NCBI GenBank assembly: GCA_026702745.1
Contig: JAPPBT010000058.1
Location: forward strand, 1-64,000
Source: Gemmatimonadota bacterium
Lineage (GTDB): Bacteria > JAAXHH01
DNA length: 64,000 nucleotides
Direction of reading: 5' to 3'
In this document: positions 872 through 10,910 of the stretch, piece after piece
Layout of the letters: each line of letters starts with the position of its first letter
How positions within the stretch are numbered: the first letter of the stretch is position 1
Position numbers and translations under genes: made by a program
Notes under the pieces: model-generated
Told to the model about the DNA's origin: nothing
The model's input: the letters and a program-made list of their open reading frames with translations, nothing else
Database searches by the model: none

Positions 872-2494
872 GTGCCAGCAAAACAACTTTCATTCGACGC
901 GGATGCCCGGCAGGCCCTCAAGCGAGGGGTGGACGCCCTGGCTGACGCGGTCCGTGTCACCATGGGTCCGAAGGGCCGATGCGTCGTGCTCGACAAGAAA
1001 TTCGGTTCGCCTACTTTCACGCTGGACGGCGTCACGGTGGCGAAGGAAATCGAGCTCGAGGACAACTACGAAAACATGGGCGCCCAGATGATCAAGGAAG
1101 CCGCGTCGAAGACCAGCGACGTGGCCGGTGACGGGACGACCACGGCCACCGTCCTCGCCCAGGCCATCTACGCGGAAGGCTTGCGGAACGTGACTTCCGG
1201 CGCCAATCCCATGGATCTGAAGCGGGGCATCGACAAGGCCGTATCCGCGGTGGTCGGCTCGATCGCTGAAATGTCGAAGGCCGTGGAAGGACGGAAGGAA
1301 ATCTCCGAGACCGCCACCGTTTCGGCCCATGGCGACGGCAACATCGGCGACCTGATCGCGGACGCGATGGAAAAAGTGGGCAAGGACGGCGTCATCACGG
1401 TCGAAGAGGCCAAAAGCATGGAAACCTCCCTCGACGTCGTGGAGGGCATGCAGTTCGACCGCGGTTACCTGTCGCCTTACTTCGTTACCGACTCCGAGTC
1501 CATGGAAGCGGTACTCGAGGACACGAAGATCCTGATCCACGACAAGAAGATCAGCGCCGTCAAGGATATCTATCCCGTCGTCGAGAAGATCGCCCAGAGC
1601 GGCTCCCCGCTGCTGATCATCGCCGAGGATATCGAGGGCGAGGCCCTTGCCCTGCTGGTGGTCAACAAGCTTCGCGGCACCCTGAAGGTCGCCGCGGTGA
1701 AAGCGCCGGGGTTCGGCGACCGCCGGAAGGCCATGCTCGAAGATATCTCCATCCTGACCGGCGGCACGGTCATCTCCGAGGACGCCGGTTTCAAGCTGGA
1801 GAACGTGACCGTGGGCGACCTGGGTACGGCCAAGCGCGTCAACCTCGACAAGGACAACACGACGATCGTCGAAGGCGCCGGCGGCACCGACGCGATCCAG
1901 GGACGCATCAATCAGATCCGTGCCCAGATCGAGGAAACCACCTCCGATTACGACCGGGAGAAGCTCCAGGAACGCCTGGCCAAGCTGGCGGGCGGCGTGG
2001 CGGTCATCAACGTGGGCGCCGCGACGGAAGCCGAGATGAAGGAGAAGAAGGCCCGGGTCGAAGACGCCCTCAACAACGCCAAGGCGGCCATCGAGGAAGG
2101 GGTCGTGCCGGGCGGCGGCGTCACGTTCATCCGCGCGCTTTCCGCATTGGACAACGGGCTGGACACCGAGGGCGACGAAACCGTCGGCGCCGGCATCGTG
2201 CGCAAGGCGCTCGAGGCGCCCGTGAGGCAGTTGGCGGAGAACGCCGGTCTGGAGGGTTCCATCATCCTGCAGAAGATCCGCGAAGGCGAAGGCGGATACG
2301 GTTACAACTTCGAATCCGATGCCTACGGCGACATGTCCGAAACAGGCGTGATCGAGCCCGCCAAGGTTTCCCGCGTAGCGCTGCAGCACGCCGCGAGTAT
2401 CGCCGGCCTGCTGCTGACCACCGAAGCACTGGTGGCGGAACTCCCTGATGATACCCCGCCTCCGGCCATGCCTCACGGCGGCGGCATGTACTAA
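872..2494 (+). CDS. groL: 60 kDa chaperonin GroEL
   Basis: The 540-residue product has the full GroEL sequence layout and usual length: the ATP-binding [10 protein letters not shown] segment near residue 87, the apical domain, and a Gly/Met tail ending GGGMY. GroEL forms the double-ring ATP-dependent folding chamber in the cytoplasm with its GroES lid. The GTG start at 872 is preceded by AGGGGGT at 858-864. Unusually for bacteria there is no groES immediately upstream, where only the leader and promoter lie, and none downstream. The gene is a single-cistron unit under CIRCE/HrcA control and is closed by an intrinsic terminator at 2540-2570. Confidence 0.97.
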
Positions 2495-2539
2495 GCGGGA
2501 CGCTTCGATTAGGGACCGGTCCCCGACCGGTTGCAGGTA

Positions 2540-2570
2540 AACCCCCGGTGGCATTCACCGGGGGTTTTCT
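2540..2570 (+). terminator. Intrinsic terminator of groL
   Basis: An 11-bp perfect stem, AACCCCCGGTG (2540-2550) with CACCGGGGGTT (2556-2566), around a 5-nt loop, ending in TTTTCT. It lies 46 bp after the groL stop and just before the next promoter. Confidence 0.85.
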
Positions 2571-2571
2571 C

Positions 2572-2600
2572 TTGCTACGACCGGTTGCCGATTCTATATT
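2572..2600 (+). promoter_or_regulatory. Promoter for the aminotransferase-folB-folK-glmU-like unit
   Basis: TTGCTA (2572-2577), a 17-bp spacer, and TATATT (2595-2600), starting right after the groL terminator and 53 bp before the next start codon. Confidence 0.6.
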
Positions 2601-2653: not shown

Positions 2654-3946
2654 ATGAGAAACCCGGTGGTAATAGAACGCGCGGAGCGGCTACACCAGAT
2701 CCCGCTGAACCGGCCCCTTGAACATTCCCGGTACTTAAGAAGACTGGCCGCCAGGGGGATCGAGCCCATCGATCTGACCACGGGCATTGCCGATCCCCTC
2801 CCGCGCCAGGATACCATCGAGAAGACCTTCGACGCCGTGGCGGCCACCGGAGGTCGAGGCGACCTGGGCGGACCAGGCGGACCAGGCGGACCGGGCGGAC
2901 CAGGCGGACCAGGCGGACCGGACGATCTGGCGGAGACATCCCGGCATGCCGGCGACGCGTTCCGCAAGGCATTCAGCAACTGGTTCGCGTACCGGTTCGA
3001 CGTGGAGATCGATCCGGACACGCACGTCCTGCCCTTCGCGGGTTCGGCGGTCGGCCCGGCCTGCGTGGCCATGGCGCTGGTCAACCCGGGCGAAACCGTG
3101 CTGGCGCCCGACCCCTCCCACCCGGCGTACCGGACCAGCGCCGTGCTGGCGAACGGGCAGATCCAGTCCTATCCCCTGCACGGACGAAACGATTTCCTCC
3201 CCAACCTGAAGCAGATCGAACCCCGGATCGCCGGGCAGGCAAAGCTGATGTACGTCGGTTTTCCGAACGACCCGACCGGGGTCGTGGCAGACCATTCGTT
3301 CTTCCGGGAACTCATCGATTTCGCGCGCAGGCACAACATCATCGTCTGTCACGACGCGACGCAGCATTTTCTGACGTACGACGGGGTCGAAGCCCCGAGC
3401 CTTCTGCAGACGCCCGGCGCGATGAACGTGGGCATCGAGTTGTTTTCCCTTTCCGTGCTGCCCGGCGGCATGTTCCGCGACCTGGGCGTGGCGGTGGGCA
3501 ATCCATCCGCGCTGGCCGCCATGTCCCAGTTGACCTCCCATCTGCATGACCCGTTGCTGCCCGGTCTTCTCGCGGCCGCGGCCGCGGAGTTTCCCCGTCT
3601 GGACCGGCACGTGGAAGCCGTGGTTTCCCGGTGCAGGTCGCAAAGGGACCTGATGGTAACGGGGCTGCGGGACCTCGGTTGGCACCTGCCCGCACCCGGC
3701 GGCGGACCTTACGTCTGGCTTCCCGTGCCGCCCCGCTATTCCTCCGTTCGATTCAGCATCCTGTTGCGCAAGGCGGGCGTGTTCGTCGTGCCCGGCGCAT
3801 ACCTGGGCGAGTACGGCGAAGGATACGTCCGGATGGCCTTCAACGGCGAAGAGTCGCAGATCCGGTCCGCGCTCGACCGCATCGACCGGCAGATGTCGCG
3901 GTTCCGTTTGCGCAAACGGGCGTTCCCCGCGGTCAGTCTGGCCTGA
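2654..3946 (+). CDS. Class I/II aminotransferase-fold protein lacking the PLP lysine
   Basis: The 430-residue product aligns by eye with the LL-diaminopimelate/alanine aminotransferase group (PLP fold type I). The usual active-site motifs are altered. The Asn of the N-P-T-G motif is Asp (D206, in PNDPTG). The conserved Asp that contacts the PLP ring nitrogen is present (D234), but the following Tyr position is Gln (Q237). The Schiff-base lysine of the SLSK motif is Val (V268, in SLSVLPGG). The substrate-carboxylate Arg near the C-terminus (YVRMAF) remains. A Gly-Gly-Pro repeat (residues 72-89) is inserted near the N-terminus. ATG 2654 is chosen because family similarity begins just after it and a promoter lies upstream. 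The fold is clear; ordinary transamination is unlikely. It heads a unit with folB and folK. Confidence 0.75.
   Translation: MRNPVVIERAERLHQIPLNRPLEHSRYLRRLAARGIEPIDLTTGIADPLPRQDTIEKTFDAVAATGGRGDLGGPGGPGGPGGPGGPGGPDDLAETSRHAGDAFRKAFSNWFAYRFDVEIDPDTHVLPFAGSAVGPACVAMALVNPGETVLAPDPSHPAYRTSAVLANGQIQSYPLHGRNDFLPNLKQIEPRIAGQAKLMYVGFPNDPTGVVADHSFFRELIDFARRHNIIVCHDATQHFLTYDGVEAPSLLQTPGAMNVGIELFSLSVLPGGMFRDLGVAVGNPSALAAMSQLTSHLHDPLLPGLLAAAAAEFPRLDRHVEAVVSRCRSQRDLMVTGLRDLGWHLPAPGGGPYVWLPVPPRYSSVRFSILLRKAGVFVVPGAYLGEYGEGYVRMAFNGEESQIRSALDRIDRQMSRFRLRKRAFPAVSLA
2867..2920 (+). repeat. 9-bp tandem repeat, six copies, encoding (Gly-Gly-Pro)6
   Basis: Six units of GGCGGACCA or GGCGGACCG inside the aminotransferase-like gene. 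Because the unit is a multiple of three, the frame is kept. The same GGCGGACCA-type unit recurs in the spacer before folK (4435-4479). Confidence 0.9.
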
Positions 3947-3959
3947 ACGGATCCGCCCC

Positions 3960-4349
3960 ATGCCCGGAGACTGGATCAACGTGCGGGGAATCCGCACATT
4001 CGGCCATCATGGCGTGACAGCCCGCGAACGGGCTCGGGGACAGGTATTCGAAGCCCACGTCGCACTGCGCCTGGACCTGTCGGAGTCGTCCCGGACTGAC
4101 CGCCTTTCCGATACCGTGGACTACGCCGACGTATGCCTGCGCGTAGGACGCATCCTCGGCGGCGAGCCATGCCGTCTGCTGGAGGCGGTCGCCGGCCGGG
4201 TGGCGGACGAGTTGCTTTCCGCCTACCCCCCTGTGGACCAGGTCGTGGTCAGACTGTGGAAGCCCGGGGTCGCCGCGGACCTGCCCCATTCGGGAACCCC
4301 CGGAGTCACCGTGCATCGAAGCAGGGAGTCGGAACGTACCGGACCGTGA
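3960..4349 (+). CDS. folB: Dihydroneopterin aldolase
   Basis: The 129-residue product has the FolB pattern throughout: an N-terminal GIRTFGHHGV segment followed by the catalytic Glu (HGVTARE), the SDTVDYADV strand-helix, the LLEAVAGRVADEL helix, and the late WKPGV segment with the conserved Lys. It converts 7,8-dihydroneopterin to 6-hydroxymethyl-dihydropterin and glycolaldehyde in folate synthesis; the enzyme works as a cytoplasmic oligomer. It starts 13 bp after the aminotransferase-like gene and is followed by folK, the next enzyme of the pathway, which supports one operon. Confidence 0.93.
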   Translation: MPGDWINVRGIRTFGHHGVTARERARGQVFEAHVALRLDLSESSRTDRLSDTVDYADVCLRVGRILGGEPCRLLEAVAGRVADELLSAYPPVDQVVVRLWKPGVAADLPHSGTPGVTVHRSRESERTGP

Positions 4350-4370
4350 GGTACGGGAACGTGACGTACC

Positions 4371-4479
4371 GGACCGAGCGGTCCATGCGGGCCAGGGGGA
4401 CCAGGCCAGGGGGACCGAGCGGTCCATGTGGGCCAGGCGGACTAAGCGGACTATGCGGACTATGCGGACCAGGCGGACC
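4371..4479 (+). repeat. Compound repeat in the folB-folK spacer
   Basis: Two 26-bp near-identical copies (4371-4396 and 4412-4437, one mismatch), beginning GGACCGAGCGGTCCATG, run into five 9-bp units of the type ATGCGGACT (4435-4479). The repeat stays open in the folK frame from an ATG at 4426 and would add 22 Arg/Thr-rich residues, but the ribosome-binding site favours the later ATG. Confidence 0.8.
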
Positions 4480-4491
4480 GCAAGGAGCGAA

Positions 4492-4986
4492 ATGGCGTCT
4501 GTTGCGCTTGGACTGGGCAGCAACATGGGAGATCGCGTCGCAAGATGCCGGCAGGCGCTACGCGAACTGGCCGGACATGAGGCGATCCGGATCGTCCGGC
4601 GCTCGTCATGGTACGAGACGCGGCCGGTGGGCCATGCCGGCCAGCCCGACTTCGTCAACGGCGCGGCCCTCCTGGAGACCACGCTTGCGCCCATGGGACT
4701 GCTTGAAACGCTCAAGGACGTCGAAGCGCGCATGGGACGTTCCGTCACGTGGGAAAAAGGGCCCCGCGAAATCGACCTCGACCTGTTGGTCTACGACGAC
4801 CTGGTACTCGAACGGCCGGGTCTCGACCTGCCCCATCCCGCCATGGCGCAGCGGGCCTTCGTGCTCGTTCCCCTGGCGGAAATCCACCCGGACCTGGTCC
4901 ACCCGGTGCACGGGCGGACGGTTTCCGACCTGCTGGATGACCTGAAACCCGTGGACCATCTCGTCCGCTATCTCACCGAGCCGTAA
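4492..4986 (+). CDS. folK: 2-amino-4-hydroxy-6-hydroxymethyldihydropteridine pyrophosphokinase (HPPK)
   Basis: The 164-residue product carries the HPPK signatures: LGLGSNMGDR at the N-terminus, SSWYETRPVG, FVNGAALLET, and the Mg/ATP motif GPREIDLDLLVYDD, then LPHPAMAQRAFVLVPL. It transfers pyrophosphate from ATP to 6-hydroxymethyl-dihydropterin, the step after FolB. The start at ATG 4492 is set by AAGGAGC at 4482-4488 and by the family N-terminus (VALGLGSN). The ATG at 4426 lies inside a repeat and lacks such a site. Confidence 0.94.
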   Translation: MASVALGLGSNMGDRVARCRQALRELAGHEAIRIVRRSSWYETRPVGHAGQPDFVNGAALLETTLAPMGLLETLKDVEARMGRSVTWEKGPREIDLDLLVYDDLVLERPGLDLPHPAMAQRAFVLVPLAEIHPDLVHPVHGRTVSDLLDDLKPVDHLVRYLTEP

Positions 4987-4997
4987 CCGGAGCCCCG

Positions 4998-5786
4998 ATG
5001 GAAGAAGCCAACGACGATCTGATCACACTGGTCCTGGCCGCGGGAAAAGGCACGAGGATGCATTCCGATCTGGCGAAGGTGCTGCACCGCATAAACGGCC
5101 GGGCGATGATTCACTACGTGCTGGACACGGCGCGAGCGCTCCGTCCGCGGCGGATCATCGTCATCATCGGCCACCAGGCCGGCGCGGTGCGGCAGGAACT
5201 GGCCGGATCGCCCGGATTGCCCGGACCGCCCGTGGAATTCGCCGTGCAGGAGGAGCAATTGGGCACCGGTCACGCGGTGCGCCAGGCCGGACCGCTGCTG
5301 GCCGGAGAAAGCGGCGGAGTCCTCGTCCTCGCCGGAGACACGCCCCTGATTCGTCCTTCCACCCTGGCGGCGTTGATCGGCGCGCACCGCCGGGAAGGTG
5401 CCGCGGCCTCCGTACTCACCGCACACGTCGACGACCCCGTGGGACTGGGCCGCATCCTGCGGGACAGCGCGGGCCGGATCGACCGGATCGTCGAGGAGAA
5501 GGACGCCACCGGGGTACAACGGGCGCTTAAGGAGATCAACACCAGCACCTATTGTTTCGAACCGGACCTGCTGCTGCGGGCCCTGGACCGGCTGACCCCG
5601 GAGAACCGGCAGGGCGAGTACTACCTGACGGATACCATCGAGATTCTCCGGCGGGAGGGCCACCGCATCGCCGACGCCCCGGCCGGCACGCCGGAAGAAG
5701 CCATGGGGATAAACACCCCGGAGCAACTGTCGGCTGCCGAATCCTGGCTGCTGGAACGTGACGGCGCGCCGCCTCGCGACAGCTAA
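4998..5786 (+). CDS. GlmU-like nucleotidyltransferase, uridyltransferase domain only
   Basis: The 262-residue product matches the N-terminal half of GlmU: LVLAAGKGTRM with the nucleotide-binding loop and a following Lys, EEQLGTGHAV, the metal-binding AGDTPLI, the EINTSTYCF segment and QGEYYLTD. GlmU makes UDP-GlcNAc from GlcNAc-1-P and UTP, but the usual left-handed beta-helix acetyltransferase half (~200 residues) is absent. The frame stops cleanly at 5786 just before a strong promoter, so this is not an obvious frameshift. It is either a stand-alone sugar-1-P uridylyltransferase or a partner to a separate acetyltransferase. It lies 11 bp after folK, probably in the same unit. Confidence 0.8.
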   Translation: MEEANDDLITLVLAAGKGTRMHSDLAKVLHRINGRAMIHYVLDTARALRPRRIIVIIGHQAGAVRQELAGSPGLPGPPVEFAVQEEQLGTGHAVRQAGPLLAGESGGVLVLAGDTPLIRPSTLAALIGAHRREGAAASVLTAHVDDPVGLGRILRDSAGRIDRIVEEKDATGVQRALKEINTSTYCFEPDLLLRALDRLTPENRQGEYYLTDTIEILRREGHRIADAPAGTPEEAMGINTPEQLSAAESWLLERDGAPPRDS

Positions 5787-10795: not shown

Positions 10796-10850
10796 AGCGG
10801 AAACATGGCCGGGGAAAGGCGGCCGTAGCGGATGATCGGAACCGATCGTG

Positions 10851-10910
10851 TCCGAGCAGGTCCGAGCAGGTCCGAGCAGGTCCGAGCAGGTCCGAGCAGG
10901 TCCGAGCATG
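10851..10910 (+). repeat. 10-bp tandem repeat, six copies, in the rpsB-tsf spacer
   Basis: TCCGAGCAGG repeated five times exactly (10851-10900), plus a sixth copy with one change (TCCGAGCATG). It lies between two essential translation genes, where copy-number change would alter the mRNA spacer without touching coding sequence. Confidence 0.95.

What the first reader, a model, noticed from the sequence alone, without database searches (positions are those of the whole stretch)
2654..3946. Aminotransferase fold without its catalytic lysine beside folate genes
The SLSK lysine is Val268, the NPTG Asn is Asp206, and the Tyr that contacts the PLP phenolate is Gln237, while the fold-wide sequence and the C-terminal carboxylate-binding Arg persist. 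Three coordinated losses in an intact, promoter-equipped gene suggest a repurposed, non-PLP or regulatory protein co-transcribed with folB and folK.
Basis: partly seen in the sequence, partly recalled or inferred. Interest (0 to 1): 0.6.

Follow-up and report, generated by a model that had tools for sequence, protein, structure and literature searches.

The report
Phylum-wide aminotransferase without its catalytic lysine
A whole candidate bacterial phylum keeps, under strong selection, a descendant of a lysine-pathway enzyme that has lost the parts that hold its vitamin B6 cofactor, so it must now do some other, unknown job; its place next to folate genes is inherited from its working ancestor rather than a clue to a folate role.

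Summary
The 430-aa protein at 2654-3946 is a fold-type-I aminotransferase homologue of the LL-diaminopimelate aminotransferase (DapL) family. The PLP lysine is Val268, the NPTG Asn is Asp206 and the phenolate Tyr is Gln237. The phosphate Arg is also Asp276, and further cofactor positions are changed.

Orthologues occur in all 16 held genomes of the phylum. Fifteen cover the active site, and all 15 lack the Lys (V/T/M/S/I/F), the Arg (D/E) and the Tyr (Q/H). The Asn change is confined to the window's genus. dN/dS is 0.20, below folB (0.30) and folK (0.27). A dedicated promoter and the gene neighbourhood are conserved. This is therefore an old, functional pseudoenzyme, not decay.

The folate link is inherited. 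Lysine-bearing DapL genes lie beside folK, sometimes folB, in many other lineages, once as groEL-DapL-folK. Deep-branching members carry DapH, so DapL was probably made redundant. The window's genus lacks detectable dapB and lysA yet keeps the protein.

Best explanation: a neofunctionalised, PLP-free descendant of DapL, probably a homodimeric ligand-binding or scaffolding protein. That mechanism is inferred, not shown. Novelty: a new pseudoenzyme family in a known fold.

The parts
2654..3946 (+). pseudo-aminotransferase (pAT), 430 aa, DapL-derived, no PLP lysine
   Evidence: model pLDDT 83, Foldseek best matches are aminotransferases
3455..3457 (+). codon of Val268, position of the Schiff-base lysine
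   Evidence: K in 22/22 DapL-type rows; V/T/M/S/I/F in the 13 pAT rows of A2 and in all 15 orthologues
3269..3271 (+). codon of Asp206, position of the NPTG Asn (D only in the genus; N in G012, G013, G014)
3362..3364 (+). codon of Gln237, position of the Tyr that contacts the PLP phenolate (Q/H in all pAT)
3479..3481 (+). codon of Asp276, position of the PLP-phosphate Arg (D/E in all pAT): charge reversal
   Evidence: R in 22/22 DapL-type rows, D/E in 13/13 pAT rows
3830..3832 (+). codon of Arg393, retained substrate-carboxylate Arg
   Evidence: invariant in both groups
2786..2953 (+). variable linker (residues 45-100) replacing the GDPDxPTP...HxYPSYEG segment; holds a (GGCGGACCA)n tract at 2857-2921
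   Evidence: pN/pS 0.71 against 0.06-0.16 in the N-terminus, core, ex-Lys region, C-domain and tail
3890..3943 (+). C-terminal tail (residues 413-430) absent from the DapL rows, most constrained part of the protein
   Evidence: pN/pS 0.06; absent in nearly all 22 DapL rows
2572..2600 (+). sigma-70-like promoter TTGCTA-17-TATATT of the pAT gene
   Evidence: TTG...CTATATT seen upstream of the gene in all 15 genomes compared
2539..2567 (+). intrinsic terminator-like hairpin behind groEL, which separates groEL from the pAT transcription unit
   Evidence: dG -30.9 kcal/mol for the 51-nt stretch, z -6.6; hairpin recognisable in the upstream alignment; the simple consensus scan did not list it
872..2494 (+). 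groEL, conserved upstream neighbour
3960..4349 (+). folB, 13 bases behind the pAT stop
   Evidence: TIGR00525 above cut-off; synteny
4492..4986 (+). folK (likely start 4492 behind AAGGAG; the ORF is open from 4426)
   Evidence: TIGR01498 above cut-off; sequence; synteny
4998..5786 (+). nucleotidyltransferase, conserved downstream neighbour
   Evidence: PF12804/PF00483; synteny

Best explanation
The gene is a vertically inherited descendant of dapL (LL-diaminopimelate aminotransferase) that lost covalent PLP catalysis in the ancestor of this candidate phylum and was then refunctionalised. Shown at sequence level: Schiff-base Lys, phosphate Arg and phenolate Tyr gone in all orthologues that cover the site; fold, Asp234 and Arg393 kept; strong purifying selection; new invariant residues where the cofactor loop was, and a new constrained C-terminal tail. 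Inferred: an acyl-DAP route with DapH made DapL redundant in the ancestor, freeing it. Mechanism I commit to (about 0.4, inferred): it folds as an aminotransferase-like, probably homodimeric protein that no longer carries PLP and uses the remodelled cleft (Arg393, new Asp276, His296, Tyr383, Glu386, Arg366) and the new tail to bind a carboxylate metabolite or a protein partner, acting as a sensor or scaffold rather than a transaminase. Its place with folB-folK is inherited operon context.
For: DapL ancestry: best NCBIfam models; in the tree the 15 pAT proteins form one clade (100/100) among DapL rows and apart from the phylum's other aminotransferases. Context is ancestral: lysine-bearing DapL next to folK in about half of the closest outside loci, with folB in L024 and L086, with groEL in L092. 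Loss ancestral and complete. Confined to the phylum in this sample: profile A1 scores 696-829 bits in the 15 phylum genomes with full-length genes, at most 380 bits in the rest of 384 genomes searched, and the 15 best outside loci all have the Lys. Selection: dN/dS 0.20 against 0.30 (folB) and 0.27 (folK); pN/pS 0.13 in the ex-lysine region, 0.07 in the N-terminus, 0.06 in the C-tail. Type-II switches cluster at H264F, T269L, N271G, M272G, R276D, K294T, N296H, V377F, G383Y. Redundancy: DapH (TIGR03532 above cut-off) in G012, G014, G015, beside dapB in G014 and G015; no dapB and no lysA match in any of 12 genus genomes. Own promoter. Fold kept.
Against: No ligand, partner or activity is shown, so the sensor/scaffold step is inference. 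Asp234 (PLP N1 partner) and Ser265 are retained, so non-covalent PLP or PMP binding is not strictly excluded. The tree has a long pAT branch (1.1), so its exact place among DapLs is unresolved. Absence of dapB/lysA in the genus rests on profile searches of MAGs. DapH in G012 lies on a different contig from its dapB, so linkage there is not shown.
Confidence: 0.72

Rival explanations
1. A folate-linked protein: the aminotransferase fold was repurposed to act on or regulate folB/folK products.
For: pAT, folB and folK are adjacent and conserved together in the longer phylum loci examined, pAT and folB 13 bases apart in the window.
Against: The same adjacency with folK, and sometimes folB, is found around lysine-bearing DapL genes in other lineages, so it predates the repurposing and carries little information on the new role.
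Confidence: 0.1
2. A catalytically dead subunit that pairs with an active aminotransferase, as LCB1 does with LCB2 in serine palmitoyltransferase.
For: Precedent: hLCB1 lacks the PLP lysine and forms a heterodimer with hLCB2 (PMC3794620). Other class I aminotransferases exist in the genome.
Against: No DapL-type paralogue with a lysine was found in the own genome; the next-best TIGR03540 match in G000 is an aspartate-aminotransferase-like protein (P0002) that pAT matches at only 22% identity over 142-417, E=2.3e-5. It lies on a different contig (C29).
Confidence: 0.15
3. It still binds PLP or PMP non-covalently and performs lysine-free chemistry, as the His-containing sugar 3-dehydratases (ColD type) do (precedent from memory).
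For: Asp234, Ser265 and Arg393 are kept.
Against: Nothing catalytic replaces the Lys (V/T/M/S/I/F), the phosphate Arg is reversed to Asp/Glu and the phenolate Tyr is gone in all orthologues covering the site.
Confidence: 0.1
4. A decaying relic kept only as a translated leader for folB-folK.
For: Linker is variable with microsatellite-like expansion.
Against: dN/dS 0.20, below that of folB and folK; N-terminus, ex-active-site region, C-domain and C-tail strongly constrained; intact full-length frame in 15 of 15 genomes that cover it.
Confidence: 0.03

Closest known systems
LL-diaminopimelate aminotransferase DapL (TIGR03540 / NF006756; class I aminotransferase)
   Same: Fold, length, sequence (about 31-36% identity), folK neighbourhood, Asp234 and Arg393 equivalents
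   Different: Lacks Lys, phosphate Arg, Tyr, the HxYPSYEG loop and, in the genus, Asn, the stacking Tyr and the GSK Lys; scores far below the family cut-offs; has a new C-terminal tail
LCB1 subunit of serine palmitoyltransferase (fold type I pseudoenzyme)
   Same: Conserved fold-type-I protein without the PLP lysine (PMC3794620)
   Different: LCB1 belongs to another subfamily and pairs with a close active homologue; no such partner was found here
ColD-type PLP enzymes without lysine (from memory)
   Same: Lysine of fold type I replaced
   Different: They carry a catalytic His at the site; here it is a varying, non-catalytic residue
B. subtilis BacF and P. aeruginosa 2x5d aminotransferases (closest solved structures)
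   Same: Overall fold, TM about 0.75-0.79 by query length
   Different: The aligned sequences carry LSK/FSK-type motifs where pAT has LSV

Membership tests
LL-diaminopimelate aminotransferase (TIGR03540 equivalog) | score above the curated cut-off (593.25 bits) | tested here: not met
   273.6 bits; 271-396 bits for the phylum members searched
LL-diaminopimelate aminotransferase (TIGR03540 equivalog) | PLP-binding lysine in SLSK | tested here: not met
   V/T/M/S/I/F in all orthologues covering the site
LL-diaminopimelate aminotransferase (TIGR03540 equivalog) | LL-DAP transaminase activity | not testable with these tools
   no experiment; dapB, which makes the substrate, has no match in 12 genus genomes
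Aminotransferase class I/II fold (PF00155) | profile match above gathering score | tested here: met
   112.3 bits against 19.7; Foldseek
DapL lineage (descent) | groups with DapL rather than with other class I aminotransferases, in the DapL neighbourhood | tested here: met
   tree; folK adjacency; long branch leaves the exact place open
Pseudoenzyme | catalytic residues absent in a conserved lineage under purifying selection | tested here: met
Heterodimeric dead subunit (LCB1 type) | close catalytic homologue in the same genome | tested here: not met

The most novel reading that the evidence does not exclude
The former PLP pocket has been rebuilt into a new cofactor-free active or effector site (Asp276, His296, Tyr383, Glu386, Arg366, Arg393), making this a PLP-independent fold-type-I enzyme or metabolite sensor on which a whole candidate phylum depends.
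Probability: 0.2. Interest if true: 0.75.

Novelty: new variant of a known kind. Interest (0 to 1): 0.5.

Why it matters
Fold-type-I pseudoenzymes are known mainly as dead partners of a close active homologue. A stand-alone one, carried by every held genome of a phylum and evolving under strong constraint after its pathway was replaced or lost, is a clear natural case of an enzyme outliving its reaction and acquiring a new role. It is also a warning for annotation: such proteins are likely to be labelled aminotransferase or DapL and used to infer lysine/DAP prototrophy.

Tried and rejected
Structure from the phylum-only alignment A1 was poor (pLDDT 46.5); adding lysine-bearing DapLs (A2) gave 83.0, but the DapL rows may bias it towards the canonical fold, and no coordinates were available for distance measurements. 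The second pAT-like hit in G007 (C1:16-855) is a different, lysine-bearing aminotransferase (MSKSYNMAGWR), cut by the contig end. A plant-type DapL (TIGR03542) as replacement: none in 9 phylum genomes. A spare lysine: only K197 and K373 are shared by all orthologues, and neither looks placed for it. Literature searches for an earlier description of a lysine-less DapL found none in the open-access library, which is weak evidence of novelty. ColD could not be found by text search because the word also matches 'cold'. The tandem repeats were counted but not pursued.

Full report
What is there. The window lies on contig C58 of a 3.9-Mb genome; its named relatives are MAGs deposited as Latescibacterota or Gemmatimonadetes. 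The ORF at 2654-3946 encodes 430 aa, matches Aminotran_1_2 and, among curated families, LL-diaminopimelate aminotransferase best, though at about half its cut-off. A model reaches pLDDT 83 and its best PDB matches are aminotransferases.

The losses. In A2, with 13 pAT rows and 22 DapL-type rows, K is 22/22 in DapL and V/T/M/S/I/F in pAT at 268; R is 22/22 and D/E in pAT at 276; Y is 22/22 and Q/H at 237; N is 22/22 against D (genus) or N (three deep members) at 206; Y is 22/22 against H (genus) or Y (deep) at 156; K is 22/22 against A or S (genus) or K (deep) at 132; N is 22/22 against H, with one N, at 296. Asp234 and Arg393 are invariant in both. The equivalences to PLP lysine, phosphate Arg and so on follow established knowledge of this fold. 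The loss of Lys, Arg and Tyr is thus shared by all orthologues that cover the site, and the rest came later in the genus. New invariant residues fill the old lysine loop (F264, L269, G271, G272, D276) and the small domain (F377, Y383), and a C-terminal tail absent from the DapL rows is present.

Distribution and age. All 16 held genomes of the phylum match; G015 has only a C-terminal piece at a contig edge, so its active site is unseen. Among 384 genomes the phylum's full-length proteins score 696-829 bits and everything else at most 380; the 15 best outside loci all have the lysine. The 15 pAT proteins form one clade with full support among DapL rows; the branch is long, so the exact sister is unresolved.

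Selection. NG86 dN/dS in the genus: pAT 0.20, folB 0.30, folK 0.27, groEL 0.05. By region pN/pS is 0.07 (N-terminus), 0.71 (linker), 0.16 (core), 0.13 (ex-lysine region), 0.40 (301-350), 0.09 (C-domain), 0.52 (398-412) and 0.06 (C-tail). The protein, not just the reading frame, is being kept.

Context. groEL-pAT-folB-folK-nucleotidyltransferase-LytR_C-RsfS-PfkB-(MtnA) is kept in the phylum loci examined, apart from genes cut off by contig ends. groEL ends in a strong hairpin terminator, and a promoter-like TTG...CTATATT follows in all 15 genomes compared, so pAT heads its own unit. The decisive point against a folate reading: lysine-bearing DapL is next to folK in L023, L026, L028, L029, L031, L033, L036, L083, L084, L087, L090, L095 and L096, next to folB-folK in L024 and L086, and L092 is groEL-DapL-folK (L094 repeats the L033 gene).

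Pathway. No TIGR03540 match above cut-off in 10 phylum genomes and no TIGR03542 in nine. dapB is found only in G012, G014 and G015; lysA above cut-off only in G012, G013 and G014, with a split sub-threshold match in G015. DapH is present in G012, G014 and G015, beside dapB in G014 and G015. The acyl route therefore plausibly replaced DapL; the genus then lost dapB and lysA, so the substrate of DapL is apparently not made there at all, and pAT persists nonetheless. That argues for a DAP-independent role. MurE in G000 carries the DNPR motif, which from general knowledge marks the DAP type; this leaves the source of its third peptidoglycan residue open.

How it works. Shown: fold, losses, selection, descent, context. 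Inferred: PLP-free ligand-binding or scaffold function using Arg393 and the new residues, probably as a homodimer. The heterodimer rival is weakened by the lack of a close partner; residual PLP chemistry is unlikely but needs a spectrum. A lysine-less fold-type-I subunit has precedent in LCB1 (PMC3794620).

Verdict. A new pseudoenzyme family in a known fold.

Noticed in passing
window 2857-2921 and 4370-4479: A 9-base repeat (GGCGGACCA, read as GGP in the pAT linker) recurs between folB and folK and across the genome: 96 matches to a two-unit 17-mer (up to 1 mismatch) in G000, 84 in G005, but 0-1 in G012-G015, so it expanded within the genus. The backward-read control scores nearly as high there, so the count is not very specific to this exact unit.
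   Followed up: partly
G000 and 11 other genus genomes; MurE at L006 (G000:C50:1690-3081): No dapB or lysA match in 12 genus genomes, yet MurE over the cut-off in 11 of them and, in G000, with the DAP-type DNPR motif; DapF in 4 of 11 tested (G000, G001, G002, G006), DapD in G006 (above an NCBIfam cut-off) and a DapD-like match in G004. Compare F. nucleatum, which lacks the DAP route, uses lanthionine and has a DapF-like racemase (PMC11602996).
   Followed up: partly
window 4998-5786: A 262-aa stand-alone nucleotidyltransferase (PF12804/PF00483) conserved downstream of folK in the phylum; GlmU-like by eye, but its substrate was not examined.
   Followed up: no
window 10850-10908: Perfect 10-base tandem repeat GTCCGAGCAG, 5.9 copies.
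   Followed up: no
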